From: Thalassomonas viridans
Lineage (GTDB): Bacteria > Pseudomonadota > Gammaproteobacteria > Enterobacterales > Alteromonadaceae
Direction: 5' to 3'
Assembly (NCBI RefSeq): GCF_000948985.2
Contig: NZ_CP059733.1
Span: 3,596,001 to 3,660,000 of the forward strand
DNA length: 64,000 bases
Shown here: one piece after another, positions 10,886-42,178 of the stretch
How the letters are laid out: each line of letters opens with the position of its first letter
How positions within the stretch are numbered: position 1 is the stretch's first letter
Program-made: the position numbers and the translations under genes
The notes under the pieces: model-generated
Database searches by the model: none
The model's input: only the letters and a program-made list of their open reading frames with translations
Told to the model about the DNA's origin: nothing

Positions 10886-11926
10886 ATGAAAAAAATCCTT
10901 ACGGCTACACTGGTTACCTTGTCATTGGCAGCCTGTGACAACGATAACCACCCCAGCCCAACTATTATAATCGCCCCTGTAGAGAGCCACGATTATTTGC
11001 CTGTTCCCGCCAGTGCCTTTGGGCCGGCCTTAAACGAACAGGGCTACTATGTTGCTGAAATCAGGGACGGTATTTACTGGGTAACCGAAGGCGTATATCA
11101 GGCGATGTTCATCACCACAGGCGAAGGGGTAATTGTTGTTGATGCCCCGCCAACCTTAGGGAAAAAACTGTTATCTGCCATTGCGGAGGTAACAGAAGAA
11201 ACCATCTCCCACGTGATATACAGCCATAGTCACGCTGACCATATAGGTGCGGCTTCGGTATTCCCGGACACTGCAACAGTTATTGCCCATGAAGAAACGG
11301 CAAAGCGAATTGAACGCAGCCAAAACCAGGCGATCGGCGACCCCTATTCTTTCGGCATGTTTTTAGGAGGCTCTGACGTCCCTCTTCCAGCCATTACCTT
11401 TACCGAAGAATATGAACTGACCATAGGCAATAAAACCCTACAGCTGATTAACGCTCAGGACGGCCATGCTCCCGGCAATATTTTTATCAATATACCCGAG
11501 CAAAAAGTATTAATGGTGGTCGACATCATTTATCCCGAATGGACGCCTTTTGGAGAAATGGCGCAATCAGAAAACATGCCCGCTTACCTGCATGCCCATG
11601 AGCTGTTGCTTAACTATGACTTTGACACCCTGGTATCCGGACACCTGGGCCAGTTGGGAACCCGGGAAGATGTAGAGAAACAGCTGGCCTATCTGCGTGA
11701 TATTACAGACAACGCAGCCACAGCCCTGCAAACAACAGACTTTAACGCAATTGCCACAGAATACGGGCAGGATAATCCCTGGCTCCTCTTTGAAAAATAC
11801 CTGGATAGCGTGGCAGACACCTGTAATGAAATAACACTGGACACCTGGGCGGAACAGCTGGCTGCTGCTGATGTTTTCACTAAAAGCCACTGCGCTAAAA
11901 TGGTTGAAAGTTTACGAATTGATTAA
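10886..11926 (+). CDS. MBL-fold metallo-hydrolase lipoprotein
   Basis: 346 aa with ribosome-binding site CGGAG just upstream. A lipoprotein signal ends at LAAC (Cys17). The metallo-beta-lactamase fold shows the zinc motif HSHADH at 114-119, the conserved Asp in VIVVDAPPT, a further His in DGHAPGN, the metal-bridging Asp in MVVDIIYP and a His in SGHLGQLG, so metal binding looks intact. The family includes hydrolases of lactones, thioesters and beta-lactams; the substrate cannot be read from sequence. It is probably anchored at the outer or inner membrane facing the periplasm. Confidence 0.85.
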   Translation: MKKILTATLVTLSLAACDNDNHPSPTIIIAPVESHDYLPVPASAFGPALNEQGYYVAEIRDGIYWVTEGVYQAMFITTGEGVIVVDAPPTLGKKLLSAIAEVTEETISHVIYSHSHADHIGAASVFPDTATVIAHEETAKRIERSQNQAIGDPYSFGMFLGGSDVPLPAITFTEEYELTIGNKTLQLINAQDGHAPGNIFINIPEQKVLMVVDIIYPEWTPFGEMAQSENMPAYLHAHELLLNYDFDTLVSGHLGQLGTREDVEKQLAYLRDITDNAATALQTTDFNAIATEYGQDNPWLLFEKYLDSVADTCNEITLDTWAEQLAAADVFTKSHCAKMVESLRID

Positions 11927-17161: not shown

Positions 17162-19336
17162 CTATAGCGAGCAATCCTTGTTAAAGAAATACCGCACTTC
17201 GTAATCTTCACACCGCTCGCCGCCATTATCGGCAATTTTACAAACAAATCCGTTATTGATATCGGGATCGCCAAAGATGTCGCCGGTAAGACTTGAGTCA
17301 AGCTTGGTGCCAACAACCCGGGCAAAGTAACCAACAACATCGGAATATTTGCAGCTAGCCGATAGATGTCCGCGATTTATAAGGGAAGTTACTTCTTCCC
17401 CGTCCGCTGTACCGCCGGGATTATCGGTATCAAGCCAACCGGTATCGTAATACTCCTCTGCCATAATAATATCGCCATCAAGCGTATATATACCCAGTGA
17501 TTTAATTACATCGCCGTGGGTGCCATGAAAGCCAAACAAACCGCCATCGCCTGCACCAGCTACATGTGCAGTTCCGGAACATTTACCTATTTCCACTGCG
17601 TTACCTTTGTTGGTATAGGCCAATAGCCGGGTGATTCTATCTTCAGAATCATCGTAACAGTAAGATATACCGTGAAGGTATTCACCACTTTGGGTATTCA
17701 GGGTCAAGCTATCGGAACTGCCGCCTTTGCCATTTTTTCCATAAAATTCACACAACTCGTTAGTGTCGGCCGTAGCGGGTGAAATAGTTTGTGTAAACCC
17801 GTAGCAAACCTCAATGGAGTCGAGATATCCACTACTGCCGGCAGTAAGTGCTACCGATTTCACATTGATATTATTAACCAGCAGTTTCCTATGGAGGATA
17901 TTAATGGCATCAAATGCATCGCCGCCCTCTGTAAAACCCTTGGCTTCAACCTTGGCAACTGCCTTGGTTTTATAGTCGTTGGCATTTTGGTTCGAAAGCC
18001 AAATGCCATCGATAACTTTAAAGTAATTTACCCATGCCGAGCCGGATTCAACCTTCTCCCGCAGCTCTGCATTTTCTCTGGCATTATAAGGCATAGCAAA
18101 AGTGTACCCTTCGCCTTTTGACTCACAAACTTCAAAGCCGTTTTCCCAGGCTCCTTTGTCACCCGCAAGTAACCACTGTCTATCTTCATTAACACAAACA
18201 TATTGCTTACTGGTTGAACAGTCCGCGGAAAAAATGCGACCATCTTCAACATAGGCGCACCCCTTGGTATCTGTAAGGGGTTCGCTATTCCATGACCAGA
18301 CATAATCTTTAATTTGTATCGCATAGGCAAGATCGATCAGCGGCGTATCAATGTCGGTATCATTGGCTTCTACCAGTGCTGCTTCCAAAATCTGCGCGCC
18401 ACATTCCGCTATCTCTTGTACGGATGCTCCCGATAGCCAAATCTTATCGGCGGTGTATTCATGGCTAGAATCCAGTGCCACATTTAAATTTCCCAGCTCA
18501 TAATTTTCTGAGAATGTATCACAGCTACTCGCTTTTCCTTGTTCATAGGCTTGGCTTGCCTTATGCCCCCCGGCAGCATCGAGCTTATCCGCTCCTATCC
18601 ATACCCATTCCCGATAATCAGCTTTCCCATGGTAATTACAAAGGTCTTTGTCTCTTGGGATTTGCGTGATGACAATAAGATTTTTTCCGGCTGCAAGAAC
18701 ATCCTCCTTGGTGAGCGACTGTACCGGTAAGGACGCACATTCATCATGACCATAACCCCAATCTTCCGGTTTAAAAACAATATCGCCAACTTTGTTCTCT
18801 ATTTTATCGGCAACCCGCTCACGAAAGTCTTTACCATTATGCGGATACTTGGAGTCATACACTTCCAACTTAAGCATGATCACGTCATGGGGGTTATCTT
18901 CAATGTAACTCTCAATTTGCTCTAATCCACTAGTAAAGGGTTTGGCATCAGCATTACAAATTGCCCATTCTTTAGCCCCTAAGTGACACATCATCACAGA
19001 AGAGAAGTCAGTAGATTCCGGATAAACATCAAATTCCATCAGCCGAATACCCCGCTCCATGAGTTTTTTGGGCTCATACCACTGATTTACATCATTGTAG
19101 TCGCCATCCCATTGCTTGGAAGCATAAGCATTGTGGGCACCTGCCCATAGTGTTTTTGAAAGAGGCGCTTTAGCATCGATAGTGCCCTGCAACTTTAGGC
19201 GTGTTACCTGCTCATCGCCCGTGTTAACTTCCGACACTGCCGGCGCTGCAACCCCACCTAAAAAAACAGCACCTATTAATACGCTAGCCAGATTGCCAAT
19301 TTTTCCCGGTACTAAACTACCAATATATTTGTTCAT
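17162..19336 (-). CDS. Secreted PI-PLC-X-like protein with C-type-lectin-like and jacalin-like domains
   Basis: 724 aa. A signal peptide-like N-terminus (SVLIGAVFLGGVAAPAVSE) is followed by a PI-PLC X-type TIM barrel (~55-340) with WAGAHNAY carrying the first catalytic His (68), EFDVYP (101-106) and the second His in MMCHLG (118). Residues ~345-465 resemble a C-type-lectin-like fold (WSWNSEP, GCAYV, paired Cys, WENGFEVC). Residues ~490-640 look like one or two jacalin-type beta-prism repeats (DSIEVCYG, GEYLHGISYCYD, GDVIKSLGIYT). Many Cys suggest disulfides after export. A phosphodiesterase acting on membrane lipids or GPI-type glycans and targeted by two lectin modules is the family-based reading; substrate and host are unknown. 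Confidence 0.78.
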   Translation of the reverse strand: MNKYIGSLVPGKIGNLASVLIGAVFLGGVAAPAVSEVNTGDEQVTRLKLQGTIDAKAPLSKTLWAGAHNAYASKQWDGDYNDVNQWYEPKKLMERGIRLMEFDVYPESTDFSSVMMCHLGAKEWAICNADAKPFTSGLEQIESYIEDNPHDVIMLKLEVYDSKYPHNGKDFRERVADKIENKVGDIVFKPEDWGYGHDECASLPVQSLTKEDVLAAGKNLIVITQIPRDKDLCNYHGKADYREWVWIGADKLDAAGGHKASQAYEQGKASSCDTFSENYELGNLNVALDSSHEYTADKIWLSGASVQEIAECGAQILEAALVEANDTDIDTPLIDLAYAIQIKDYVWSWNSEPLTDTKGCAYVEDGRIFSADCSTSKQYVCVNEDRQWLLAGDKGAWENGFEVCESKGEGYTFAMPYNARENAELREKVESGSAWVNYFKVIDGIWLSNQNANDYKTKAVAKVEAKGFTEGGDAFDAINILHRKLLVNNINVKSVALTAGSSGYLDSIEVCYGFTQTISPATADTNELCEFYGKNGKGGSSDSLTLNTQSGEYLHGISYCYDDSEDRITRLLAYTNKGNAVEIGKCSGTAHVAGAGDGGLFGFHGTHGDVIKSLGIYTLDGDIIMAEEYYDTGWLDTDNPGGTADGEEVTSLINRGHLSASCKYSDVVGYFARVVGTKLDSSLTGDIFGDPDINNGFVCKIADNGGERCEDYEVRYFFNKDCSL

Positions 19337-22184: not shown

Positions 22185-22213
22185 TTGATTTTAATTAATA
22201 TAAATATTAACAT
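22185..22213 (+). promoter_or_regulatory. Putative promoter of the retron
   Basis: TTGATT at 22185-22190 and TAACAT at 22208-22213 are spaced by 17 bp. Transcription would start around 22220-22221, exactly at the first base of the a1 repeat. The hexamers are only fair matches; the fit to the RNA 5' end is the main support. Confidence 0.5.
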
Positions 22214-22220
22214 TCTGCTC

Positions 22221-22349
22221 GGTTTATGGGCAGGTTTTGGATCGCGCTTCGCGATCAGTGAAAAAAATGTCCGAAAGGATTGCCTTTTAGGAGACGATTT
22301 ATACGGTTCCTAATGTTCCCTCAGGAGTGCATAAGAGTGCCCATAAACC
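22221..22349 (+). ncRNA. Retron msr-msd non-coding RNA
   Basis: The a1 repeat GGTTTATGGGCA (22221-22232) is perfectly complementary to a2 TGCCCATAAACC (22338-22349), the pairing that defines retron RNAs. After a1 comes a G (22233), the expected position of the branching guanosine. Inside lie an msr-like stem GATCGCG-CTT-CGCGATC (22240-22256), a small TCC-GAAA-GGA hairpin (22270-22279) and an msd-like hairpin with arms 22287-22296 and 22304-22313 (TTAGGAGACG paired to CGGTTCCTAA with one mismatch and one G-U, loop ATTTATA). The RNA ends 20 nt before the reverse transcriptase ATG. The exact msr/msd border and msDNA length cannot be fixed from sequence alone. Confidence 0.82.
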
Positions 22350-22369
22350 CCTTTAATAAATGGAAGTAT

Positions 22370-24217
22370 ATGCGAAAACTCAATTCCCTAGCCCAAATCA
22401 CTACAAAAGCTGAATTAGCTGCATTATTAGGAATAAAAACATCATTTCTTACTCATTGTTTATATGTTATTAAGCCTGCTAATCAATATACTCAGTTTAA
22501 AATAGCTAAAAAAAATGGGGGAGAGAGAACGATAAACGCCCCCACCAACAGATTAAAGTCTATTCAATCTGCTCTCTCACATTTATTATTAGACTGTCTA
22601 GATGAATTAAATAGGAAAAAATATCCTGCGTCAGAACTAGCTAAGTCAAGCGCTCAACATTCACATATATTAAAAGTGAAGTGCTCAAATACTAAAACAA
22701 AGCAACCTTCTTTATCACATGGATTTGAAAGAAAACGCTCTATAATAACCAATGCGATGATGCATACAAATAAAAAAAATGTATTAAACATTGATCTTAA
22801 AGAATTTTTTAACAGCTTTAATTTTGGTCGAGTTAGGGGCTTTTTTATTAAAAATGATAACTTTAAACTCGATCCACATATAGCAACAGTTATTGCTCAA
22901 ATAGCTTGTTACAACAATGAGTTACCGCAAGGTAGCCCTTGCTCGCCTGTTATTACTAATTTAATAACCCACTCTTTAGATATCAGACTCGCATTACTTG
23001 CTCAAAAACACTCTTGCACATATACAAGATATGCTGATGACATTACATTTTCGACCAGAGAGAGTATTTTCCCACCACAAATCATGCGTGAAGAAAATGG
23101 ACAGTTTATTGCTGGAAAGAAATTACGTTCTGAGATCAGGCGTTCCGGTTTTTCAATTAACAATAAAAAGACTCGAATTCAACTTAAAGACTCAAGACAA
23201 GATGTTACAGGACTGGTTGTAAATCAAAAACCAAATACAAAAAAAGAATATTGGCGTATAGCCAGGGCACAATGTAATAACCTATTTAATACAGGAGCTT
23301 TCACGAAAACAGTGAACGGTGAAACAATCAAGGGCAACGTAAGGGAATTAGAGGGGCAATTAAATTTCATTGACCAGCTAGACCACTACAATCGTCTTCG
23401 CCAAAAATCCCCTCTCAACCCCAAATACCATTTAAAAAAGGATGAAATAATAAAACAGAAGAAAGCTAAGCAAAGAAGTTATTTATTTAGTGGACGTGAA
23501 AAAACATTCAGTCAATTTCTTTTTTATCAATTCTTTTACGCAAGCGACAAACCAACGATACTAACGGAGGGTAAAACAGATAATGTTTACCTAAAAACAG
23601 CAATAAACATACTTGCTGCGAATTTTCCTGATTTAGCAAAGACCAAGACTGTCACTACTCCATACGAGTTACTATTACGCTTTGTAGAGTACTCAGAAAG
23701 GACTAAATTTTTATTAGAACTTCATGGGGGTACTGACTATTTAAAGCATTTCATAATGGGTTATGAATCCAAACTAAAACGATATAAAGCTCCAAAACCT
23801 AAACACCCAGTGATAATCGTGATTGATAACGATACTGGACCACAAGGTTTATTACACTATGTTGCCAATATATCTTCAGCCATTATTTCACCTAATTCAC
23901 TGATATTAAAACAAGATTACAGAAAAGCTGATTTTATCCATATATTTCATAACCTCTATATAGTCTTAACCCCACGTGGGGCCGGTAATACTCATACGGA
24001 TATAGAATACTTTTTTAAAGATATTGATCGACTAAGAACATATAAAGGCAAGTGTTTTAACACAGTAGCCAATCGAGACGAAGAAAGGGATTTAAGTAAG
24101 GATGCATTTGCTAAACAAATTATTAAAGCACAAAAAAAAGTTGTAGATTTTAGTAACTTGAAACCATTACTAGAGCGTTTTGTTATGGTTATTAAGCACT
24201 ACAGCACCATAAATTAG
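22370..24217 (+). CDS. Retron reverse transcriptase fused to a TOPRIM domain
   Basis: 615 aa from ATG 22370 (GGAAG at 22362-22366); an upstream TTG at 22280 lies inside the msr-msd RNA and is rejected. The RT domain (~1-320) carries the retron-specific NAMMH at 128-132, the catalytic YADD at 221-224, PQGSPCSP before it and the VTG triplet at 279-281, which separates it from group II intron and DGR enzymes. Residues ~395-560 form a TOPRIM-like fold with conserved Glu400 in LTEGKTD and the DxD motif D486-N-D488 in VIDNDTG. RT-TOPRIM fusions are known from retron Ec67, an anti-phage retron in which TOPRIM is the presumed toxic effector and the RT makes branched msDNA. The gene is clearly more AT-rich than its neighbours, consistent with horizontal transfer. 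Confidence 0.9.
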   Translation: MRKLNSLAQITTKAELAALLGIKTSFLTHCLYVIKPANQYTQFKIAKKNGGERTINAPTNRLKSIQSALSHLLLDCLDELNRKKYPASELAKSSAQHSHILKVKCSNTKTKQPSLSHGFERKRSIITNAMMHTNKKNVLNIDLKEFFNSFNFGRVRGFFIKNDNFKLDPHIATVIAQIACYNNELPQGSPCSPVITNLITHSLDIRLALLAQKHSCTYTRYADDITFSTRESIFPPQIMREENGQFIAGKKLRSEIRRSGFSINNKKTRIQLKDSRQDVTGLVVNQKPNTKKEYWRIARAQCNNLFNTGAFTKTVNGETIKGNVRELEGQLNFIDQLDHYNRLRQKSPLNPKYHLKKDEIIKQKKAKQRSYLFSGREKTFSQFLFYQFFYASDKPTILTEGKTDNVYLKTAINILAANFPDLAKTKTVTTPYELLLRFVEYSERTKFLLELHGGTDYLKHFIMGYESKLKRYKAPKPKHPVIIVIDNDTGPQGLLHYVANISSAIISPNSLILKQDYRKADFIHIFHNLYIVLTPRGAGNTHTDIEYFFKDIDRLRTYKGKCFNTVANRDEERDLSKDAFAKQIIKAQKKVVDFSNLKPLLERFVMVIKHYSTIN

Positions 24218-24490: not shown

Positions 24491-25435
24491 ATGAAAATAC
24501 CATCTAGATTCGACGAAATATTAGAAACAGTTATTAAAAGTTTTGGCATAGCATCACGATTGGGCATTGTTTTAGGGGGATTGGCTTTATTAAGTTATTG
24601 CTATCAAATAGGTTACTTTCCTGAAGGAATATCTGCTGGGGATACTATAGCTTTAATATTTGTTTCAATTGCATTTGCCGTTTTATATATCATATTCTCT
24701 GCCTCTTTATATGCACTGGGCATCAGTTTGTATCCTCTTTGGATTTTACTGAACAAATTATTTTTATTCATCGCGAAAATACGAAATAAAAAAATTACAC
24801 CGGTAGAGTACCTAAAACCTGATCCTTCATTCATTGGTTTTTCATTAGTTGGTATCTTATTCGTATTTTTAGTTGGGTTATCTGAAAAGAGTATTGTAAT
24901 TACAATGGTAATCTGCTGCTGGATGTTGGCAATTTCCGCAGCAAACAGAAAAAAGATAGCGACTCAAATATCTGATATAGAATTAACACTCTCTTCTAAT
25001 ATTTTAAATGTAAGCGAGCACCAAAAAACAGAGCTTAAAAAGAATAAAGCCCTACTAAAAAAGATGAAAATTCAACAAACTACCTTTGCTTTATTAATAC
25101 CGCTATTCTTAGGCGGTATGTCAGAAAAAATAGTAAACGGTTCACTTAACATATTATCTCTAAAAGCTCCCAGCGTTACCATTCATGTAAAAAAACCTCA
25201 TAGTAATTTATTAGAAAACTTAGGACTAAAACCGGTAGAAAAAAGTATAGGTCCAGATTACAAAACATTTAAAGGCATTGATATTTTATTAAGAGGAATA
25301 GGTAAAAATACAGTGGTGGCTCCTTTCCCACTAACACCCAAATTCAATATTGCGATCCCAAATGAAAACATCATCATCCAAAAGAAAAGATTATCTGAGA
25401 ATAAAAATAATAAAAGCCATCCAACAGAAAAGTAA
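24491..25435 (+). CDS. Multi-spanning membrane protein downstream of the retron
   Basis: 314 aa, ATG 24491 with AGGAGC at 24481-24486. Hydrophobic segments at about residues 20-42, 48-72, 75-97, 110-128, 130-150 and 195-213 predict five to six transmembrane helices. A short charged helix (~155-192, NVSEHQKTELKKNKALLKKMK) lies between the last two, and the soluble C-terminal ~100 residues are basic. No known domain recognised. The gene has the same AT-rich composition and orientation as the RT and follows it after 273 bp with no obvious terminator. It could be a retron accessory or membrane effector, but it could also be an unrelated cargo gene. Confidence 0.65.
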   Translation: MKIPSRFDEILETVIKSFGIASRLGIVLGGLALLSYCYQIGYFPEGISAGDTIALIFVSIAFAVLYIIFSASLYALGISLYPLWILLNKLFLFIAKIRNKKITPVEYLKPDPSFIGFSLVGILFVFLVGLSEKSIVITMVICCWMLAISAANRKKIATQISDIELTLSSNILNVSEHQKTELKKNKALLKKMKIQQTTFALLIPLFLGGMSEKIVNGSLNILSLKAPSVTIHVKKPHSNLLENLGLKPVEKSIGPDYKTFKGIDILLRGIGKNTVVAPFPLTPKFNIAIPNENIIIQKKRLSENKNNKSHPTEK

Positions 25436-25750
25436 GATTATGTATAAGATTTTAAGGCATATTGATAGTATTACTCAGACAAAAGCTCTAACGTTCTAAA
25501 GTTGCAGCTTAACTTCCTTCATTCTTTTCTAGCCCCTCCAAAAAAGTTCGGATGGAACAAGCTTCCTAACCAACTTTTAACTAAGCAATTTCAAAATATA
25601 AATCAAAATTCCTTATTGCGTCCCATCTCAGCAGCAGCGATAATCTACGCCATTACTACAGTGGTTATTATTTAAAAATAAGCCGCACTGGTCGATCATT
25701 TAGCTCCTTTTATTGCGAAGTGATCCCTTAAAAAGAATTAAAAAAACTAT
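25436..25750. other. 315-bp intergenic region
   Basis: AT-rich; nothing supported is seen. It forms the right edge of the retron island before the chromosomal gene sbcB. No clear flanking direct repeat was found. Confidence 0.4.
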
Positions 25751-28945: not shown

Positions 28946-29291
28946 AAATCCTCCCAACCTTACCCGGCTGAGAAAGCGCCATAAAGGTTAAAGCACACAT
29001 GCCCGAAAGCCGATGTAGGAAAGCTGAGTCTGGTTTCACGATTCATTCCCTGAGTTGCTTTATCTATGATGTCTTTCCGTGAATATTGCACAAGTGTAGC
29101 CGAGAATTTTTAAAGGACATATCCGCATGAGATCAACCGGAAAAAGTCCCCAAAAAAACAGGGTTTTCTCTCACCTGAAAAAAAGCAAAACAGAAGTGTG
29201 ATTTAAATATTTGCTCCTATCCTTAAAAAACTATTCTTTCCGCGCTCCTGCCTTGCGCATTTTTTTAGCTCTCATACTTAAGGAAAAGAAG
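28946..29291. other. 346-bp intergenic region before the giant gene
   Basis: Contains a possible 24-aa leader ORF at 29127-29201 (ATG with AAGGA upstream) rich in Lys and Ser, of uncertain reality. No clear promoter hexamers identified. Confidence 0.35.
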
Positions 29292-32200
29292 ATGAGTCTA
29301 CTTAATTTTTATTTTTCGGATCACAGTAACGAAGTAGTCAGCCGCGGCAGTAACCATTCAGTATTAGGCATCACCAACGGCCATTACAGCCAGGGGGCCA
29401 TCCAGTACCGCCACCCGGGCACCAATGCCGTATGCAGCGATAATATCCGCTATATCGAACCCGTTCAGGAAAGCAACGGCTGGGGCGGCAATGCCGCCGG
29501 GGCCACCACACTGGATCACATCCCCAACCTGGACAACTTTACTATGTCCTGCTGGGCAGACGCCAAAACCTTAGGCTTCTGGACCATCCCCTTTCTGCTC
29601 AAACAAAATAACCAGTGGCGCTTTAGCATAGACTATGAAACCACCTCCAATAATACCCTGTATGTCTATATCAGCTACTACTCCCCCCAGGGCGGCTACC
29701 ACTGGACCTATACCAGCTTTGCCCTGCCCGATAACAACTGGCATTACCTCACCGTCACCAAAACCCGGGATGACGCGCTGCGCTTTTATGTTAACGGCGA
29801 GCTGAAAGTCACCAAAACTACGGCCACGGGTGAATACACCCTGCTTAACGATGCACCGGTGGAAATGGGTTTCCGCTCGGATCAGCAAGATAATTTCCAT
29901 AACCCAGGCGCCCGCTTGGGCAACCTGCGCTTTGACACCAGCGCCGCCACCGCCGAGCAAATCCGGGCGCAGATGCTGGAAGATCTGGAGCTGCTGAAAA
30001 ATCCCCATGTACTGGATGTTAAACAGGACAGCTTTACCAACAACAATGCCGCCGTTGTCTCCAATTACCCGGCACACCCGCAGATCCCGCTGGAAAATAC
30101 TCTAAACAACTTCACCCCGAGAATCGAAAGGATCGCCGGCACCGACTTTCACTACCTTGAAGCCGAACTGAACGGCAACGGCAATTATGTACAGATCGAC
30201 CGTAACCTGAAGTTCACCGAAACCGACAGCCTGGACTACCTCAGCGTCGCCGCCTGGGTACGGGTACCCACCAATTTGCCCGCCATCAACGGCGACAACG
30301 AAGAAGAGATCATCGTCTCCTTTGACCGCAGCGAATATTTCCGCCTGTCCGTCAATGCCCCCTTCGGTACGGAAACCGGCGCTATCCTGTTTGCCACCGC
30401 GGCCCAGGTCAACGACGCCCGGGACATCCACGATCAAAGCCCCTCCGCCGGCCATAATATCAATGACGGCCAGTGGCACTTTATTACCGCAGTCTACGAC
30501 GGCGACAACCACACCAAGAAGATCTACCTGGACGGGTTATTGATCGATACCGCCGAGGGGGTGCACAGCAATCATGGCAGCTTAGGAACTGGTGTCGACA
30601 GGGTCGGTTTTATCGGCGCAGGCAGCGAAGACGACGGCAGCGGCGCTATTCATCTCGGGCCGACAAGTTCCAATTATATTAATATCGGTCGGGTGATTAT
30701 CCGCCGGGATCTGCTTTCCCCGGCGCAAATCAAGGCGCTGATGGCGCAAAGACCGGGCAGCCGTCCCGCCGAGCGGGATTTCTGGCTCGATTATCATTTA
30801 GACCACCTCAGTGACGAGCGGGTACTGGACAGCTCGGGACACCAGCACGACGCAGTATTTTCAGGCTTCCAGCGACAAAGCGAGCGCATCGGCGGCAGGA
30901 ACTTTCCCTACCTGCAAAATATCAGCGGGCAAAACAGCTACCTGGATATCGTCGATAACTTCACCCTGTCTCGGGATTTGAACTATGAATCTTTCGCCTT
31001 CTCCCTGTGGCTGAAACTGCCGCAAACCTTAAGTTCGGATCAAATCCTGGTCTCCATGGACAACAGCCAGTTTATGCAGGCCTGGGTGGATCAGGCCAGC
31101 AATACCCTGCGCTTTAACCTGGTACATAACGGCGGCACGATACAACTGAGCGGCAGCACCGCCATTAACGACAACCAGTGGCATTTCGTGACCTTCAATC
31201 TCGACTGCCCCACCCGGCAGCTCAATATCATGCTAGACGGCACAGTGGAAGCCGCCGAGTTCTTTGAAAACATCGACCGCCCGGGGGGCATAGACGCCAA
31301 CGCCAGGGTAAAAGTCGGCAGCCAGAGCAACCTGTTGATGGGGGAAAACGCCCTTTATTTCGACGGCGACATCGGCCCCGTCCGCTTCGAACGTTATGCG
31401 CTTGAGCTGTCGGAGCATAACGCCTGGCGTAAAAAAGACCGGCCGGTCACCCAGGGCAACGGCCTGGTGTTTAAACTGACCCGGTTCGAAAAATCCACCA
31501 GCCAGGTCAATACCCTGCTGGACGAGTCCGGCAACGACAACCACGCCAGGTTTGTGGAAATGGACATCAATACCGACGACGATCTGCACTACCTGGTGGC
31601 CGGCGGCGCCCAGCCCCAGGTGATGTTGCCCGCCCCTTTGGTGCAGGATCAAAGCGCCGGCATCAGCCAGCTCTCTTTCGCCTGCTGGCTACAGGTGCCG
31701 GAAGGTATGGACAGCGCCAGCGTCATCCTCTCCTTCGGCAAAAACCACTACTACGAACTCGGCATTACCGACCAGGGCAAGGCCAGCCTGATCACCCAGG
31801 GACACCAGGTAATCGACCCCAACGAAGTCGACAGCCAGTTCCTCAATACCCTGGAAAGCGGCCTGGCCATCAACGACGGCCAGTGGCACCACATCTGCGC
31901 CATTTATGACGGCGTCGGCGGCTTTAAACGCCTGTATATCGACGGCCACCTGGACCGGGAAATTGCCGATCCCCACGAAGGCGCCCTCGGCTCCGGCACC
32001 ACCCGTTACGGCATCATAGGCGCCCCCAGCTATTCCGAGTCTTTTGCCGACAATCCCCTGCCCGCCGATGCCCACCTCTTGTCCCGCGAAGCGGACGACA
32101 TCGTGCGCATCGGGCCGCTCTACCTGTACAACTCGGCGCTGGACAACGTCAGCATAGAGCAGCTGGTGAACCAGGACAATTCCTACCTGCTCAACCGCCT

Positions 32201-35200
32201 CACCAAAACCTACAACCTGGACAACGGCTACTATACCCAGGTACGTATGGTGCAGCATGAAAACCAGCTGGTATTGCTGGCCCAGGCCAGCGACGGCAGG
32301 TACTATTACGGTGCAGTGGCACCGCAAATCGTCAGCAACAGCGAGCGCAACCAGCGGGCGGCCGAGCAGCTAAGGAGCGGCACCCAGGACAACAGCCAGG
32401 TGCGCACCGACGTTTCCTACTGGCCGGCGGCCCTGAAACAGCTGCTTTTCCCCACCGAACTCAGCCAGGTGGGCTACAGCATAGTGGACAATTACGTCTT
32501 TGAAGACCAGCCGGAAGACCCCCGCGAAGACAACTACAGCATGACGGTCTTTAACCGCTCCACCGGCATTCTCGGCGAAAACCAGCCGTTTAGGTTGCTC
32601 TCCGACGGCGAATACCTGATCTTATGCCGCCAGGCCAAATCCAAAGACGACGCCAGCGTGCCCAGGCGCAACAACAAGGCCATAGTGGACAAAACCCTGC
32701 TGCTCGACCGTTTCGTGCTCACCGGCGATACCCTGACCCCTAAATTGGAATCCAGGTACCAGCGCAGCCGCAACAAGATCAGGCCCTTTAACAGCAAAGA
32801 CTCGAAAGATGTCCGCGATCTCAACGGGGAGTTCTTCTACGAACCCACCCACGAGCTGGCCTTTGTCGACGACCTCTATAACGGCCAGTTCGACGTTACC
32901 CTGGTGCCGACCTCCACCGGCTCCCAGTCCCGCTGGTCGATTATGGCGCTGGAGCATAAACGTAAACTGCTGCGCTACTTCAGCCTGCCCACCGCCAACG
33001 ACGGCCTGTTCGACACCAAAGGCAAAACCTACTACACCAGTCCGGACGTACAATACCGGGACAGCATTTACCAGGACAGGCCGGGCCTGGATCCCTTCAG
33101 CGGCGAGCCATTGATCCCGGTCCAGGGCAAACCCGGCTCGGCGGGCTACGCCCTGTCGCTGATTTCCGGCAGCTATTTACGCCTGGACAATCCCTGGTAT
33201 GAAGCCGCCAATACGGGTGCCAGCAACGGCAAACCGCAACAGTTCACCCTGTTGCTGAGGCTGAAATCCCAGCTGGTGCAAAGCGGCGACGGCCCCCGCT
33301 GGCTGCTCAGCTCCGACAGCCATACCGGCTTGTCGGTGTGGATAGCCAACAACAATATCCTGTATTTCGAATACGGCGGGATCCAGCGCAGTGTGCCTGC
33401 GGTGATCCCCGATGAAAACTGGCACCAGCTGACCTTTGTCTACCGCCAGGGGGAAATCATCATCTACCGCGACGGCGTCAGCCAGGCCCTGACGAGTAGC
33501 AGCGAAAGCAAACCGGCCCAGCCTTTTGCCAGCATAGATAGCGGCCTGTACCAGCTTGGCGGCGGCAGCCAGGATCTCGGCCAGGTGGACGATATCCAGT
33601 TATGGTCGCTGGCGCTGGAAAATGAAATCCTGTTCGATGCCGTCAATATAGTGCCCCAGCCCAATGCCCCCGGCCTGGTGGCTTACTACGGCATCAACGA
33701 AGGCGCCGGCGGTGAAGTGTATGATCACAGCAGTAAAAAACGTATCGCCAGCCTGACTCCGGGCAGCGCCAACGGCCAGTCCCTGACCACAAACGATCTG
33801 TGGCGGCGCTCGACCGCCAACCAGTTTGAGAGCACCGGTTTGGTACAGCGGCTGTATAAATTACACGATACTCCGGCCGCTGCCGATATCAATGACTACC
33901 TGGGCTTTGATCTCGAATATTACCAGGTGCAGGAAGACGGCATGAACGGCGACGGCGAACCCACCAATGTCCTCAGCGACCGCCGTATGATGCTCACCGC
34001 CGCCGTCGGTCAGAGCAACAGCACTAAACTTGCGGCGGTGGATTTTGCCGTCGATCTCGACGGCACCCTGGCAAACGTCGGCACCCGATTGGCGCTGCCG
34101 GCCTTAGATACCGGCGGCCAGGGCTTGCCTTTAGAGCGCCTGGCGGAGCTGGAAACCCAGGTAGAGGCGTTAAAGGCCAAATACGATGCCGCCGTCGGCT
34201 GGCTCAGGCAGAATAACTTCCTGCTGACGCTGGATGAAGGCAACACGCCGCTGGCCTTTGGCCGCGATGCCGCGCTTGAGCTCAACTTCAATTACCTGGT
34301 TAACCTGGATTACGATTTCAGCGACAACAATAACCTGGACTTAAGCGCGCTTATCCGGGATAACGAAACTTTCAATGCCGCCTATGAACAGGTTTTCCTG
34401 GTGGATCCCGACGACGGCAGCGGCAACCGCCTGGCCCCCAGCCTGGACGGCAGCCTGATGCCGCTGGATGCGGACCTGTCCGGCCTGTACCCAAACTTCA
34501 GCGCCGACGCCATGGGTAAACTCTTGTTTAACAATGAAGATGTTAATCAGCAGCAAAACTACCAAACCTTTTTGCTGCAATTAAGCGAGTTCCGCTGGGC
34601 ACGGGAAACCACCCGGCTGGCAGCGCAATATAACGGCGGCCAGCAGCAGATATTGTGGCCGAGCGGCGTTTTCCAGTATGTGAATGCGGCGGCAAGCCAC
34701 GGCGCCGGCCTCAACGTTGACCCCCACCTGCTGGTAACCGGCATCATGCTTAACCTGTATTTCGACTATGCCGTTAAGCTGCAGCAGCTCACCGATGCCA
34801 GGGAAAACTATAACAGCGAAAGCCAGTTTATGATGCCGATCGTCGCGGCGGACCAGCGGGGACTCACCGCCAAGGCGGGTTTCTTCAATGAAATACGGCC
34901 GCAAACCGCTCCCACCCTCAAGCGCAACAGCAGCGGCGGGGTCGAAGTCTTCTTTAAAGGCCGCAATAACAAGATGCTCAGCGCCTACTACGGCACCGCC
35001 ACCGGCCGCGCCATACACAGCCTGGCCACCAGCAACCAGGAAAAAACCTATATCCAGGCAAAATCCACCGAAACCGAATATAACCATACCCGCATCAGCA
35101 TCAGCGACGGCAGCACCGCCCAGCTGTGTAACCTCAATATCGTCAACAGCGCCCTGGGCTTGACGGAAACCTGGAGCGACGTGCCGAGATCGCCGGGCAA

Positions 35201-38200
35201 GTTTGCCACTGTGATCAACGGCAAGGCCTCCACCCTGACCGGCCTGGCGCTGGATCTGCAAACCTATGATTATACCAATGTGATCACCGAGGCCGATACC
35301 AACGGCCTGGAGCTGGGCAGCCGCCTGATCTATGTGGTGCCGGCATCGAGCATCTCCCCCGCCAACAACCTGCTGGAGAATGTCAGCAACGCCCTGCCGG
35401 ATGCGGTGTTTAAGGCCAACAGCTGGACCACGGACAAGGTGGATAAAGGGCTGAACTTTAACGGCAGCAACCACCTGCAGGCCACCGCAGACGAGCAAAG
35501 CCGAGTGCTGATCAACGCCCTGCAGGACATGACGCTGGAAGCCTGGTACCTGCCGCAGCTAACCGCCTCCCCCCAGACCTTAATGGCCTACCGGGACCCA
35601 CAAAACCGCCAGGCAGATATCCGCCTGAAACTGGTGCCGCAAAGCGATCCGCTGAAATATAAAATCAATTTCCAGCATGCCGGCAAACAGTTCCAGTCCC
35701 GCACCAGCTACGCCTTTAACAGCCTGGCCCATTATGCCGTGGTGATGAAAAAACAAGGTGGCCTGGAGCTGGCGCCGCGCGCCCGCAAGCTTACCGTTAA
35801 CGATACCAGCGGCACCTTCGCCTTAAAGGGAGATACTACCTTAGATCTCACCTTCTCCCTGGCCAATACCCGCAAGGATGTCGACCAGGTGCTGATGCAA
35901 AAAGGCAATAACTTCAAGGTGTTTGTCGATACCACCGGCAACCTGGCGCTGACCTTCCGCGACGAGGATGCCCACGAGTTCACCACTAAGTTGCCCACAG
36001 GCACGGTATTGCAAAACAATACCCGCTACCGGATTTTTGTCAGCATAGACCAGGCGGTGAACACCCGCGCCGCCCTTAACGACATTTACGCCAGCAGCAC
36101 CAATGTCGGCTCCGCCACGGATCTGACTTCCCTGATCCCCGACGGCACCAGCTTCAGGCTCAACAATTCCGACAACTACACCATAGACAACTTCGCCGTG
36201 CCCAGTCTGCCGGATACCAGCACAGACACCAGCAGCGGGGCCAACTCGCAATATATAGTGGCGGTGAACCTGGAAGTGTATAACCTGGATGCCGGCGATG
36301 ACGTACCTTCGCTGGCCCTGGACAGCCCGGACAAACATTACTGCGGCAATTTCCTCGACCAGCAGGATAACTCCGCCTTTGAGCTGATGACCAACCTCGG
36401 CAGCTCCCGCACCATCTACCAGGCCGCCTTCTGGTCGCTGCTTCGGGCCAAGGCGGATCAAAACACCCTGATTTCCGGCAGCGAAGAAGGCCTGACCGCC
36501 TGGTGGCCGTTCTCGGAAAATGCCGGCGGGGTGGCCGCCAACCGGCAAAACGATCAGCTGAGCCTGGACTTTTCCGGCGCCCGCGGCACACCGGCGGCCG
36601 GGTTTAACTGGCAGCTGGGCAGCGCCGACCAGGGCATCAACCTTTATGTCAACGGCAGGGAAAGTGAGCTGGACAGCGTGGCCGTCGACCATATCCCTGC
36701 CGGGGATGCAATAATCGGTCTGCAACTGGGATGTGACGCCAGCCAGAATAACCACTGTACCGGTCACCTGGGGGATCTGCGGCTATGGCGCTCGGTGCGC
36801 AGCTATGAACAGCTCATAGAAGCCGCCTTCTCCGCCACCCCGGGCAGCAGCCAGGACTTATTGCTGCATTACGACCTTAACCGCTCCGACGACAACCAGG
36901 TCTTTAACCAGGCGGCCAACGGCTTTGCCCTGAACATCATAGAGCCGAGCAACGCCGAAAATACCGATCTCGTGGTCAGTCAGTCGGTGGCGCCCGTGGG
37001 TTACAATGCTCCCTTTATCCGCAATGTCTTCCTCGATGCCAACTCCCCCATGCATATTGAGGTTAAAACCGACTCGCCGCTGGATGTCGCCTACTATGCC
37101 GTCGCCAACCAGGGTTCCACCGGGGTTGAAGGCGGCTTATACAAAGGGGCCTATGCCTATGTAGACAACGGCGAGCTGAAAATCTATACCGGCCAGCCGG
37201 TAGCCGAGCTTTACACCGAGTGGTTAAGTCAGGTACAGACAGATCCGCAGATCGTCGGCTTTATCGAAGGGGCGCCGCCGGTACCCGGGGAAAACCTGAC
37301 CGGCGGCGATTATAAGGGCGCCACGTCGGTGGCGGTCAGCACCAGTGAAAGCGACAGTTACAGCTGGGGCCGCAGCCGCTCCGACTCAGGCTCTGTCGGC
37401 ATCAACTTTGATTTCGGCATAGGACCGACCGTGGATGCCTCCAACAACTTCTCACCGCTGGGCTTTGGCCCGAGTCTGAAAGTGATCAAGGCCAAGTCCC
37501 GCTTCAACCTCGGCTTCAATGCTTCCTTCGGCGGCGGTTTCGACGCCAGCAAGAGCCTTTCCGCCAACTTGAGCCTGAGCCAGGAGCTGCAGCAAAGCCT
37601 CGGAGGCGAGCAGGAAAGAAAACAGAACTATTACCTGACGCCACAGCGGCGCTTCCAGCCGGATAACCTGGGCACGGCGCTGGTAGAATCACTGACCGCA
37701 GATCTGTTTGCCCTGAGGATAAAACGCAACAAGGCATTGGTGGGTTACAGCGTGGTGCCCAACGAAGATATTCCCCGGGACAGGAATATCATACATTTCC
37801 CCATCAACCCCAAATACACCAAACAGGGAACACTGGACGGCAAGCTCGGCTTTAGCAGCCAGGATTCGCAGTTTGTGCTGATCAAAGATCCCAACTATCC
37901 GCAGGCCGCCACCTACGGCGAATACAGCTACTTCAAACCCAAAGAGACCTACCGCCTGATCCAGGAGATCGACGATAACCAGGCGCAGATCCAGGAGAAG
38001 TATAACCAGTGGGATACCTGGAAGCTCAGGACCTTTGATTACAATCTGGGGGGCCTGCCGAGCCAGAACTCGGATGCCATTGTCGGCAGTTCGGATCAGG
38101 GCGAGCAGAACCGCCAGCAATACGAGCCGCCAAAACTGGCGTTTGCCGTCGATTTGTACAACCGCTATATCTGGACCGCAGAAGGCGGCATGTACAAGGA

Positions 38201-39029
38201 AACTTCCGGTTATACCGAGGAAGTGAAAAACTCCTATACCGGTAAGTTCAACTTCAAGTTCAGCGCCAAGGCCGGTTTTAAAACGGATATAGTGCTGACC
38301 GCCGTTGCTTTTGATATCGGGCTGGGCCTGAGCGTCGATGCCAGTTTGAACCTGTCCACCACTAAATCTAAAGGCAGCAAGGACGGTTTTAGCCTGTCCG
38401 CCAGCGTTTCCGGGGAGAAAGATCTGCAGCTTTACACCATCAACGAAGCCGAACGCAGCTTTTACGGCGCGACGGAGGTCGGCGATGCCGCTTATGATCT
38501 CGATAACGCCATCAGCACCCCGCATGGTGAATATACCCCGGGCACAGCCATCAACCGGCCCGGTAAAGTGGACGCCTATCGCTTCTATTCCTTCTTCCTG
38601 CAGCCGAAAGAAGCTTCCTTTGATTACCTGCGGGAAATGGTAATAGACCAGGCCTGGATCCGGGAAAGCAACGACCCAGGCGCGGCGGCCCTGCGCCAGG
38701 TGCTCAAACCCGGCGTGCCATTAAGGGAAAACGAGAAGTCCAAACCCTGGCGTATCATGCACCGGGTGTCTTATGTCAGCCGTATCCTGCCGCCGGCCAG
38801 CGGTACTTCTGGGGAAACCACCACGGAGCAGAAAGTCGGCAGCAAGTTCGGCAGTAACCACCAGCTGCTGAGATTGCTGGAACCCTATGTTTACGCCGAC
38901 GATCTCACCAGTGGTCAGCTAGATGCCAGGGTGCGTAATGCCGTCAACCTGTATCTGCCCGAGTTCAGCGACCACCAGAGCAAGCAATATATAGTCAACC
39001 TGTTTAAAGACTATTACGGACTGGCATAA
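29292..39029 (+). CDS. Giant LamG/concanavalin-A-like repeat protein (3245 aa)
   Basis: Start set at ATG 29292 (AAGGAAAAGAAG upstream); an in-frame start at 29211 lacks a ribosome-binding site. No signal peptide is visible at the chosen start. Residues ~1-1000 hold four LamG-like jellyroll modules with the recurring pattern INDGQWHxxxxxYDG...LYxDG (around 29.4-30.0, 30.1-30.7, 30.8-31.4 and 31.5-32.2 kb). Further modules follow near 33.2-33.7, 35.4-35.8 and 36.2-36.9 kb. Between and after them lie long unclassified regions. The C-terminal ~700 residues contain a Ser/Gly-rich stretch (SDSYSWGRSRSDSGSVG) and two amphipathic beta-like blocks (INFDFGIGPTVDAS, FKFSAKAGFKTDIVL) that could insert in membranes. 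The gene is noticeably GC-rich compared with its flanks. A secreted or surface adhesin, or a toxin-like protein, is possible; no function is established. Confidence 0.75.
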   Translation: MSLLNFYFSDHSNEVVSRGSNHSVLGITNGHYSQGAIQYRHPGTNAVCSDNIRYIEPVQESNGWGGNAAGATTLDHIPNLDNFTMSCWADAKTLGFWTIPFLLKQNNQWRFSIDYETTSNNTLYVYISYYSPQGGYHWTYTSFALPDNNWHYLTVTKTRDDALRFYVNGELKVTKTTATGEYTLLNDAPVEMGFRSDQQDNFHNPGARLGNLRFDTSAATAEQIRAQMLEDLELLKNPHVLDVKQDSFTNNNAAVVSNYPAHPQIPLENTLNNFTPRIERIAGTDFHYLEAELNGNGNYVQIDRNLKFTETDSLDYLSVAAWVRVPTNLPAINGDNEEEIIVSFDRSEYFRLSVNAPFGTETGAILFATAAQVNDARDIHDQSPSAGHNINDGQWHFITAVYDGDNHTKKIYLDGLLIDTAEGVHSNHGSLGTGVDRVGFIGAGSEDDGSGAIHLGPTSSNYINIGRVIIRRDLLSPAQIKALMAQRPGSRPAERDFWLDYHLDHLSDERVLDSSGHQHDAVFSGFQRQSERIGGRNFPYLQNISGQNSYLDIVDNFTLSRDLNYESFAFSLWLKLPQTLSSDQILVSMDNSQFMQAWVDQASNTLRFNLVHNGGTIQLSGSTAINDNQWHFVTFNLDCPTRQLNIMLDGTVEAAEFFENIDRPGGIDANARVKVGSQSNLLMGENALYFDGDIGPVRFERYALELSEHNAWRKKDRPVTQGNGLVFKLTRFEKSTSQVNTLLDESGNDNHARFVEMDINTDDDLHYLVAGGAQPQVMLPAPLVQDQSAGISQLSFACWLQVPEGMDSASVILSFGKNHYYELGITDQGKASLITQGHQVIDPNEVDSQFLNTLESGLAINDGQWHHICAIYDGVGGFKRLYIDGHLDREIADPHEGALGSGTTRYGIIGAPSYSESFADNPLPADAHLLSREADDIVRIGPLYLYNSALDNVSIEQLVNQDNSYLLNRLTKTYNLDNGYYTQVRMVQHENQLVLLAQASDGRYYYGAVAPQIVSNSERNQRAAEQLRSGTQDNSQVRTDVSYWPAALKQLLFPTELSQVGYSIVDNYVFEDQPEDPREDNYSMTVFNRSTGILGENQPFRLLSDGEYLILCRQAKSKDDASVPRRNNKAIVDKTLLLDRFVLTGDTLTPKLESRYQRSRNKIRPFNSKDSKDVRDLNGEFFYEPTHELAFVDDLYNGQFDVTLVPTSTGSQSRWSIMALEHKRKLLRYFSLPTANDGLFDTKGKTYYTSPDVQYRDSIYQDRPGLDPFSGEPLIPVQGKPGSAGYALSLISGSYLRLDNPWYEAANTGASNGKPQQFTLLLRLKSQLVQSGDGPRWLLSSDSHTGLSVWIANNNILYFEYGGIQRSVPAVIPDENWHQLTFVYRQGEIIIYRDGVSQALTSSSESKPAQPFASIDSGLYQLGGGSQDLGQVDDIQLWSLALENEILFDAVNIVPQPNAPGLVAYYGINEGAGGEVYDHSSKKRIASLTPGSANGQSLTTNDLWRRSTANQFESTGLVQRLYKLHDTPAAADINDYLGFDLEYYQVQEDGMNGDGEPTNVLSDRRMMLTAAVGQSNSTKLAAVDFAVDLDGTLANVGTRLALPALDTGGQGLPLERLAELETQVEALKAKYDAAVGWLRQNNFLLTLDEGNTPLAFGRDAALELNFNYLVNLDYDFSDNNNLDLSALIRDNETFNAAYEQVFLVDPDDGSGNRLAPSLDGSLMPLDADLSGLYPNFSADAMGKLLFNNEDVNQQQNYQTFLLQLSEFRWARETTRLAAQYNGGQQQILWPSGVFQYVNAAASHGAGLNVDPHLLVTGIMLNLYFDYAVKLQQLTDARENYNSESQFMMPIVAADQRGLTAKAGFFNEIRPQTAPTLKRNSSGGVEVFFKGRNNKMLSAYYGTATGRAIHSLATSNQEKTYIQAKSTETEYNHTRISISDGSTAQLCNLNIVNSALGLTETWSDVPRSPGKFATVINGKASTLTGLALDLQTYDYTNVITEADTNGLELGSRLIYVVPASSISPANNLLENVSNALPDAVFKANSWTTDKVDKGLNFNGSNHLQATADEQSRVLINALQDMTLEAWYLPQLTASPQTLMAYRDPQNRQADIRLKLVPQSDPLKYKINFQHAGKQFQSRTSYAFNSLAHYAVVMKKQGGLELAPRARKLTVNDTSGTFALKGDTTLDLTFSLANTRKDVDQVLMQKGNNFKVFVDTTGNLALTFRDEDAHEFTTKLPTGTVLQNNTRYRIFVSIDQAVNTRAALNDIYASSTNVGSATDLTSLIPDGTSFRLNNSDNYTIDNFAVPSLPDTSTDTSSGANSQYIVAVNLEVYNLDAGDDVPSLALDSPDKHYCGNFLDQQDNSAFELMTNLGSSRTIYQAAFWSLLRAKADQNTLISGSEEGLTAWWPFSENAGGVAANRQNDQLSLDFSGARGTPAAGFNWQLGSADQGINLYVNGRESELDSVAVDHIPAGDAIIGLQLGCDASQNNHCTGHLGDLRLWRSVRSYEQLIEAAFSATPGSSQDLLLHYDLNRSDDNQVFNQAANGFALNIIEPSNAENTDLVVSQSVAPVGYNAPFIRNVFLDANSPMHIEVKTDSPLDVAYYAVANQGSTGVEGGLYKGAYAYVDNGELKIYTGQPVAELYTEWLSQVQTDPQIVGFIEGAPPVPGENLTGGDYKGATSVAVSTSESDSYSWGRSRSDSGSVGINFDFGIGPTVDASNNFSPLGFGPSLKVIKAKSRFNLGFNASFGGGFDASKSLSANLSLSQELQQSLGGEQERKQNYYLTPQRRFQPDNLGTALVESLTADLFALRIKRNKALVGYSVVPNEDIPRDRNIIHFPINPKYTKQGTLDGKLGFSSQDSQFVLIKDPNYPQAATYGEYSYFKPKETYRLIQEIDDNQAQIQEKYNQWDTWKLRTFDYNLGGLPSQNSDAIVGSSDQGEQNRQQYEPPKLAFAVDLYNRYIWTAEGGMYKETSGYTEEVKNSYTGKFNFKFSAKAGFKTDIVLTAVAFDIGLGLSVDASLNLSTTKSKGSKDGFSLSASVSGEKDLQLYTINEAERSFYGATEVGDAAYDLDNAISTPHGEYTPGTAINRPGKVDAYRFYSFFLQPKEASFDYLREMVIDQAWIRESNDPGAAALRQVLKPGVPLRENEKSKPWRIMHRVSYVSRILPPASGTSGETTTEQKVGSKFGSNHQLLRLLEPYVYADDLTSGQLDARVRNAVNLYLPEFSDHQSKQYIVNLFKDYYGLA

Positions 39030-41706: not shown

Positions 41707-41782
41707 GGCCTGAAAACATTAAGGAAGAGCGTGACTGAGCAGATAAGCATTCATTAAGACATGTGACCTTACATTTTCAGCC
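41707..41782 (-). promoter_or_regulatory. Expression-platform hairpin of the lysine riboswitch
   Basis: GGCCTGAAAACATTAAGG (41707-41724) is largely complementary to CCTTACATTTTCAGCC (41767-41782), giving a long imperfect stem. Its right arm overlaps the 3' strand of the aptamer P1 helix by two bases, so the two structures would compete. No U-tract follows on the minus strand, which argues against a simple intrinsic terminator. Confidence 0.5.
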
Positions 41783-41988
41783 AGAAGCTCTCCACCGAAT
41801 GACAACTTATTCCCGGATAAAATCCCGGTGATGTTGCCGATAACGAGTGACAGTCCCAGGGATTCAACCCTGGCGACCGAGCACGATTGACCACAAGCAA
41901 TAGCGCTCTCGGCGTTAGTCCCCCTCAATAACCGTCACGGGAAAAGTGGTTCCTCGTGTTATCTACCTGGCTAACGCGCCTCTTCTGG
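41781..41988 (-). ncRNA. Lysine riboswitch (L box) aptamer upstream of lysC
   Basis: Read on the minus strand, P1 is CCAGAAG (41988-41982) with CTTCTGG (41787-41781). The core carries AGAGGCGCG right after P1, the GCCAGGTAGATAAC segment, GAGGGGGACTAACGCCGAGAG, the CAGGGTTGAATCCCTGGG hairpin loop and GGTGGAGAGCTTCTGG closing P1. These match the E. coli lysC aptamer element by element. The RNA lies ~200 nt before the lysC start. A 69-codon ORF within it (41719-41928) is an artefact. Confidence 0.93.
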
Positions 41989-42178
41989 TGCTGTCGATTT
42001 ACTGGCCTGACGCCGTAAAGCAAACAGCCGGGCCATTACAGCCTATTTTGCCCTTAATTGCAATAGCCTTTTAGACGTCTATGTAATTTTATTTCAAAAT
42101 AACAGAAAGCTTATGATTGGCAGGGAAAAAATTGCTATAGTGACAGGATTGATTTATTACCTGACTTTCGAACCCGAG

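What the first reader, a model, noticed from the sequence alone, without database searches (positions are those of the whole stretch)
22185..24217. Complete retron with an RT-TOPRIM fusion
Seen: a perfect 12-bp a1/a2 inverted repeat enclosing a 129-nt structured region, then an RT with the retron-specific NAxxH and VTG motifs, YADD, and a C-terminal TOPRIM-like domain with Glu400 and DxD 486-488. Known: RT-TOPRIM occurs in retron Ec67, and retrons act as anti-phage abortive-infection systems. The RNA here is short and its hairpins are unlike any I can recall, so a new msDNA is plausible.
Basis: partly seen in the sequence, partly recalled or inferred. Interest (0 to 1): 0.92.

Follow-up and report, generated by a model that had tools for sequence, protein, structure and literature searches.

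The report
A type I-C (Ec67-like) retron
This is an intact anti-phage retron of the well-known Ec67 kind, one gene joining a reverse transcriptase to a Toprim nuclease plus its small template RNA, so it is an ordinary new member of a described family rather than something new.

Summary
A perfect 12-bp a1/a2 repeat (22221-22232 / 22338-22349) brackets a structured RNA just upstream of an intact 615-aa RT-Toprim gene (22370-24217) with NAxxH, VTG, YADD, E400 and D486/D488. It is a type I-C (Ec67/Retron-Eco2) retron: NCBIfam retron_Ec67_fus 757 bits (cut-off 450), PADLOC RT-Toprim_I-C 742 bits, solved Ec67 protein E=1e-140. The RNA is not unusual: 129 nt from a1 to a2, as in an Ec67-like locus, with predicted branch G22233, stem-loop 22240-22256 and msd 22269-22336 (msDNA 68 nt; Eco2 67). 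A covariance model from 45 close relatives found the RNA in 24 of 24 held-out I-C loci tested and 0 of 10 other RT loci. The locus is an AT-rich insertion next to sbcB, not found in three congeners. Most probable function: Eco2-like abortive defence by an msDNA-restrained Toprim RNase (inferred). New member of a known kind. Side lead: the next gene (24491-25435) belongs to a rare membrane-protein family whose relatives often lie beside other defence genes, but none of 95 other I-C loci holds it.

The parts
22185..22213 (+). promoter-like sequence TTGATT-17-TAACAT, 7 nt before a1
   Evidence: Read from the sequence. A lenient search without shuffle control finds similar boxes in 46 of 60 non-identical upstream sequences, window included; the stricter consensus scan did not list it and found fewer sites than shuffles. 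Weak.
22221..22232 (+). a1 arm of the retron RNA
22233..22233 (+). predicted branching G (Eco2 rG15), source of the 2',5' bond
   Evidence: Same base in the window and the 44 relatives of A2; position by the Eco2 numbering of PMC12405507
22240..22256 (+). msr stem-loop: 7 bp with CUU triloop (stem of the Eco2 RSL)
   Evidence: (I9), 50: 98.7% of cells paired, 2 of 7 pairs with changes on both sides
22257..22268 (+). linker (end of Eco2 RSL and ssRb) that ends in the U before the template
   Evidence: Homology to Eco2 up to rU51
22269..22336 (+). msd template; predicted msDNA of 68 nt, minus-strand sense, 5' TCTTATGCA ... CGGAC 3'
   Evidence: Homology mapping. Identity of 44 relatives to the window: 88% at 22269-22284, 40% at 22285-22326, 77% at 22327-22336
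22338..22349 (+). a2 arm
22370..24217 (+). RT-Toprim fusion protein, 615 aa (RT about 1-370, Toprim about 390-615)
24491..25435 (+). neighbouring membrane protein of a rare family; same AT-rich insertion, not a conserved part of I-C retrons

Best explanation
A complete type I-C retron of the Ec67/Retron-Eco2 family, acquired with a short AT-rich insertion next to sbcB. The RNA is transcribed with the RT-Toprim gene; a1 pairs with a2; the RT primes from the 2'-OH of G22233 and copies 22336 back to 22269 into a 68-nt msDNA that stays bound to the RT-Toprim protein and keeps the Toprim nuclease off. A phage activity that damages or captures the msDNA (DenB is the suspected trigger of Eco2) frees the Toprim RNase, which stops phage growth at the cost of the cell. 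Shown here: genes, motifs, conserved RNA architecture, place among RTs, patchy presence. Inferred from Eco2: msDNA synthesis, inhibition, trigger, RNase activity, defence.
For: NCBIfam retron_Ec67_fus 757 bits against cut-off 450, next family 278. PADLOC RT-Toprim_I-C 742 bits over 1-613, next type 328. Ec67 PDB chains E=1.2e-140, both domains. RT tree: smallest well-supported set holding the window has 8 rows, the other 7 all I-C, SH-aLRT 96. a1/a2 100% paired in 43 distinct rows, 6 of 12 pairs with changes on both sides; covariation score 0.141 against 0.087 in shuffles (0 of 500 as high) and at most 0.040 when partners are slid. Model R1 hits 24 of 24 held-out I-C loci tested, just upstream of the RT, and 0 of 10 loci with other RTs. 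Toprim residues conserved. Low G+C and gap in homology to three congeners; RT and RNA not found in them. Mechanism of Eco2: PMC12405507, Results and Discussion read.
Against: No msDNA or phage data. Residues of the Eco2 trimer loop are changed (D331/R332/Y333 to K352/Y353/H354; R332A abolished Eco2 defence), S513 is D544 and H281 is N303, so oligomer and metal site may differ. The paper's catalytic K562 could not be mapped. The number of pair types is not above shuffles (226 of 500 as high), and the shuffle test does not allow for relatedness. RNAalifold did not recover the 4-bp hairpin at 22269-22280 that I put in the model. The I-C label needs 2 changes on the tree: L085 and the type XI row are unresolved near the root, and outgroup branches are long. 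No Rfam family matches the RNA. No structure model could be made.
Confidence: 0.88

Rival explanations
1. Retron plus helper: the membrane protein 24491-25435 is a working second component here, for example a membrane anchor or executor, so that the system is a two-gene variant of type I-C.
For: Same strand, 273 bp downstream, same AT-rich stretch; distant relatives lie near or directly after other defence genes.
Against: None of 95 other loci with RT-Toprim relatives holds it by a profile search (83 of the 94 with a placed RT have at least 1.2 kb downstream). Eco2 was studied as RNA plus RT-Toprim alone (PMC12405507). The 273-bp gap suggests separate expression.
Confidence: 0.08
2. Inactive relic: a silent retron carried by the insertion.
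For: No expression data. A relative in the same family (G024) is interrupted.
Against: Full-length ORF, RT and metal-A residues kept, RNA arms perfectly paired.
Confidence: 0.05
3. Not a retron but another defence RT (DRT-like) with a fused nuclease.
For: RT with a fused effector next to a small RNA.
Against: NAxxH and VTG motifs, retron family scores, RNA covariation and tree; the only DRT model listed by NCBIfam scores 34 bits, below its cut-off of 390. PADLOC showed the best 25 of 45 families, all retron RTs.
Confidence: 0.01

Closest known systems
Retron-Eco2 (Ec67), type I-C
   Same: RT-Toprim fusion, YADD/NAxxH/VTG, E-D-DxD-E Toprim site, a1/a2 pairing, branch G, 7-bp stem with triloop, msd of nearly equal length (68 against 67 nt)
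   Different: About 41% identical overall to Ec67-like copies (L110, L111, L121); about 25 extra residues within 81-113; S513 to D544; trimer loop R332 to Y353; msd middle unlike in sequence
Close I-C relatives (Colwellia MAG P0002, Thalassotalea P0003, Shewanella baltica plasmid pSBP2_mcr4, Undibacterium, Rheinheimera)
   Same: 67-82% protein identity; same RNA layout where checked (S. baltica, Undibacterium, Rheinheimera)
   Different: None of the loci that I could see shares the window's neighbour genes; msd middle diverged
RT-TIR (type XII) and RT-protease (type XI) retrons
   Same: RT domain fused to an effector; next-best PADLOC families
   Different: Other effector domain; 328 and 321 bits against 742

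Membership tests
Type I-C retron (Ec67/Eco2) | RT with retron motifs NAxxH, VTG, YADD | tested here: met
Type I-C retron (Ec67/Eco2) | RT fused to Toprim in one gene, full-length family match | tested here: met
   757 bits, cut-off 450, residues 4-611; 742 bits, 1-613. Pfam itself lists only RVT_1
Type I-C retron (Ec67/Eco2) | Toprim metal residues E, D, DxD, E kept | tested here: met
   E400, D404, D486, D488, E546; Eco2 S513 is D544, D in 24 of 24 rows of A1
Type I-C retron (Ec67/Eco2) | Catalytic lysine (K562 in the paper) | tested here: inconclusive
   Residue 562 of the Ec67-like protein I used is D; K589 of the window is K in 22 and R in 2 of 24 rows
Type I-C retron (Ec67/Eco2) | Adjacent RNA with paired a1/a2, branch G and msr stem-loop | tested here: met
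Type I-C retron (Ec67/Eco2) | RT falls among I-C RTs in a tree | tested here: met
   8-row set, 96; the I-C rows were labelled by how they were fetched, only L121 and L126 of them also by PADLOC
Type I-C retron (Ec67/Eco2) | Trimer-interface residues D331/R332/Y333 (a feature of Eco2 itself, not a defining one of the type) | tested here: not met
   K352/Y353/H354; Y at the R332 column in 23 of 24 rows
Type I-C retron (Ec67/Eco2) | Makes msDNA | not testable with these tools
   needs total DNA from the strain or a clone
Type I-C retron (Ec67/Eco2) | Stops phages; Toprim acts as RNase | not testable with these tools
   needs plaque and RNase assays

The most novel reading that the evidence does not exclude
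The gene after the retron (24491-25435) belongs to a rare family of membrane proteins without a domain model in the libraries tried (4-6 hydrophobic segments and a C-terminal part with a G-x-G ... (V/I)P motif) that many unrelated defence systems carry as a portable partner: here an I-C retron, elsewhere McrBC, SIR2-STAND, a PifA-like KAP NTPase, a PtuA-like ATPase with a methylase, or restriction genes. It may give such systems a common membrane-directed sensor or executor.
Probability: 0.1. Interest if true: 0.6.

Novelty: new member of a known kind. Interest (0 to 1): 0.22.

Why it matters
As a retron it adds one more intact I-C system, with a clear msDNA prediction, from a branch whose Eco2 trimer-loop residues are replaced. 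That branch could show which parts of the Eco2 mechanism are general. The locus also led to a small membrane-protein family that recurs beside different defence genes, which is testable.

Tried and rejected
Rfam at gathering and at permissive threshold: no retron family; the six permissive hits are eukaryotic RNAs. Stability of the predicted msDNA as a distinguishing mark: weak here (z -0.49) and just as weak for the Ec67-like copy (z -0.37), both folded with 8 nt beyond the msd, so no difference. Direct repeats around the insertion: 6 families of 14-18 nt, all imperfect. Second copies in the genome: one RNA, one RT-Toprim; the other RT hits are weak. Neighbour genes shared by I-C loci: the largest cluster spans 8 loci, 6 of them look-alike viral contigs, smaller ones 3-7 loci; no cluster includes the window's neighbours. 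Other defence genes in the window: 10 further ORFs scanned with PADLOC, not all ORFs; one (52997-54778) scores 120 bits to mad3, not followed. Relatives of 24491-25435 left out of the context count: H54 (opposite an annotated ORF) and H55 (OmpA family protein), the 49-residue stop-containing hit in G832, H44, H47, H48 and H51 (not opened), and L173-L175 (not examined for cargo). A search for a known PifA partner gave no relevant PifB paper in its listing; searches for a retron membrane partner and for PD-Lambda-5 gave nothing on this family in their listings. That is not proof that the family is unpublished. Papers: PMC12405507, Results and Discussion read; PMC11555353, PMC12548924 and PMC8934634, passages; all others, search listings only. 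'Hahella' with 'retron' gave two papers, listing only. The host's name was not established.

Full report
OBSERVATION. The repeat GGTTTATGGGCA / TGCCCATAAACC is perfect; 129 nt is its length with both arms. The protein begins at ATG 22370, 20 nt after a2. The protein has N128AMMH132, YADD 221-224, VTG 279-281, E400 and D486/D488.

FAMILY. NCBIfam gives retron_Ec67_fus at 757 bits against a cut-off of 450. PADLOC gives RT-Toprim_I-C at 742 bits over nearly the whole length; the next type, RT-TIR XII, has 328. The only PDB sequences matched over both domains are Ec67 proteins. Pfam lists only RVT_1. A protein search gave 5485 relatives at E <= 1e-30 among the 7999 candidates scored (a cap); the nearest of the 120 listed are 82% (Colwellia MAG) and 76% (Thalassotalea) identical. 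In a quick tree of 52 RT domains the window lies among I-C rows; the smallest well-supported set holding it has 8 rows, the other 7 all I-C (96). The I-C label as a whole needs two changes because L085 (Streptococcus) and the single type XI row are unresolved near the root, and several outgroup branches are long. The 18 outgroup rows were typed by PADLOC; the 33 I-C rows were labelled by how they were fetched, two of them also by PADLOC.

RNA. Of the 93 loci fetched with relatives (76, 17) I took 62. An open search for the best inverted repeat was followed by a stricter one shaped on it (12 nt ending in A and followed by G, at least 11 of 12 pairs, bounded spacing), which found a1/a2 upstream of the RT in 61 of 62. 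It missed L085, where the covariance model later found a longer RNA at 34 bits. Forty-five RNAs of the close clade, window included, were aligned (A2). On the 43 distinct rows all a1/a2 cells pair and 6 of 12 pairs show changes on both sides. The stem-loop pairs in 98.7% of cells, 2 of 7 pairs changed on both sides. A 4-bp hairpin at the template's start pairs in 94.8% of cells without compensatory changes. Percentage paired, number of covarying pairs and covariation score exceed all 500 shuffles; the number of further pair types does not (226 of 500 as high). The shuffles do not allow for relatedness; the slid controls, which do, give a covariation score of 0.002-0.040 against 0.141. RNAalifold on its own recovers a1/a2 and the stem-loop, adds four pairs inside a1/a2, and does not recover the 4-bp hairpin. 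Model R1, built from A2, was run on 24 I-C loci not used to build it: 24 of 24 score (30-126 bits) just upstream of the RT. Some of the 24 are look-alikes (L110 with L113, L111 with L112). Two weak antisense hits (20 bits) mirror the palindromic ends. In 59 genomes of relatives, with strict filters, it hits only the window's genome and G024, whose RT is 54% identical to the window's.

MAP TO ECO2. Counting the Ec67-like locus L111 in the published Eco2 numbering (PMC12405507) puts G15 directly after a1, G20-U42 on the stem-loop with loop A30-A31-U32, U51 before the template and G52 as its first base. It gives a 67-nt msd whose DNA begins with T and ends CTGCC, all as published. The same columns in the window give branch G22233, stem 22240-22256, msd 22269-22336 and a 68-nt msDNA. 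Identity of the 44 relatives to the window is 88% at the template's start, 77% at its end and 40% in the middle. Predicted folding of the msDNA is weak in both the window and L111.

MECHANISM. In Eco2 the msDNA-bearing complex is a self-inhibited trimer, the Toprim domain is an RNase, and four sequenced escaper phages carried denB mutations; direct activation by DenB was not assayed (Results and Discussion read). Another group reports Eco2 and Eco7 acting on T5-like phages that had lost a region with tRNA genes (PMC11555353, passages). The window keeps E400, D404, D486, D488 and E546. It differs at S513 (D544; D in 24 of 24 rows), H281 (N303), R332 (Y353; Y in 23 of 24 rows) and neighbours. 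The paper reports that R332A abolished defence and partly impaired the trimer, so oligomer details may differ in this branch. The paper's K562 did not map onto a lysine in my Ec67-like sequence.

CONTEXT. The retron and the following gene lie in a stretch of 32-37% G+C inside DNA of about 41-60% (1-kb steps). Compared with stretches of three congeners, homology stops near 10.6 kb and resumes at 25,588-25,607, just before sbcB, which all four genomes keep. The three congeners lack the I-C RT, the RNA and the membrane gene; their RT hits are weak or none. RT-Toprim relatives also occur on plasmids and in viral contigs.

THE NEIGHBOUR 24491-25435. It has no match in Pfam, NCBIfam or PADLOC. A single-sequence search of 5.8 billion proteins listed one relative besides itself. 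A profile search listed 17 proteins, the two included, from a capped set of candidates that did not show the plasmid relatives used in the profile, so 17 is a lower bound. Ten contexts were examined, window included: (1) this retron; (2) A. baumannii plasmid record L158, after an AAA and a McrC gene; (3) A. baumannii L163 and L165, after an NA37 gene and two ORFs without a match; (4) viral contigs L171, L172 and L176, after a PtuA/OLD-like ATPase and a PD-Lambda-5_B-like methylase; (5) L177, after a restriction specificity gene; (6) Pantoea plasmid, after a SIR2-STAND gene; (7) Vibrio plasmid, after a PD-(D/E)XK gene with no PADLOC match; (8) genome G249, after a KAP NTPase scoring 294 bits for PifA; (9) genome G700, beside a ComM-like ORF, with a DUF2971 gene of weak PDC-S31 score on the other side; (10) genome G867, no defence gene recognised by eye, not scanned. 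So 8 of 10 show a known or candidate defence or restriction gene close by, two of them (7, 9) weakly; contexts 3 and 10 do not. L165, L171, L172, L176 and L177 share the same left ORF, so contexts 3 to 5 are at least partly one prophage hotspot with this gene as a border and changing cargo. No control with other membrane genes was made. None of 95 other I-C loci holds the gene. I therefore do not count it as part of the retron.

VERDICT. A complete, probably working type I-C retron; new only as a member. Interest is low for the retron itself; the neighbour family is the lead worth following.

Noticed in passing
window 24491-25435: Rare membrane-protein family without a match in the domain libraries tried; relatives lie beside McrBC, SIR2-STAND, PifA-like KAP, PtuA-like plus methylase, PD-(D/E)XK and restriction genes.
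   Followed up: partly
L165, L171-L174, L176, L177 (Acinetobacter phage and IMG/VR contigs): One prophage hotspot: the same left ORF in these loci, the membrane gene as right border, changing defence-like cargo between (cargo seen in L165, L171, L172, L176, L177).
   Followed up: partly
L003 and L016 (genome G024): A related RT-Toprim in the same family as the window's host is interrupted by about 1 kb near residue 498; its RNA still scores 67 bits.
   Followed up: partly
L054 532-3204: Copy in a Bathymodiolus symbiont spans about 840 bases more than its protein needs, so perhaps interrupted.
   Followed up: no
window 10.6-25.6 kb: Variable region beside sbcB; three congeners carry other DNA between the same flanks.
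   Followed up: partly
window 41777-41992 (-): Lysine riboswitch, 86 bits.
   Followed up: no
window 17162-19336 (-): 724-aa protein with Jacalin-like lectin and Mucin2 WxxW regions.
   Followed up: no
window 29211-39029 (+): ORF of 3272 aa, by eye with several repeated lectin-like segments (no domain search made).
   Followed up: no
window 10886-11926 (+): Metallo-hydrolase with weak scores to metallo-beta-lactamase models, all far below their cut-offs.
   Followed up: no
window 52997-54778 (-): 593-aa ORF scoring 120 bits to the PADLOC model mad3, best stretch 487-581; may be only a shared signalling domain.
   Followed up: no
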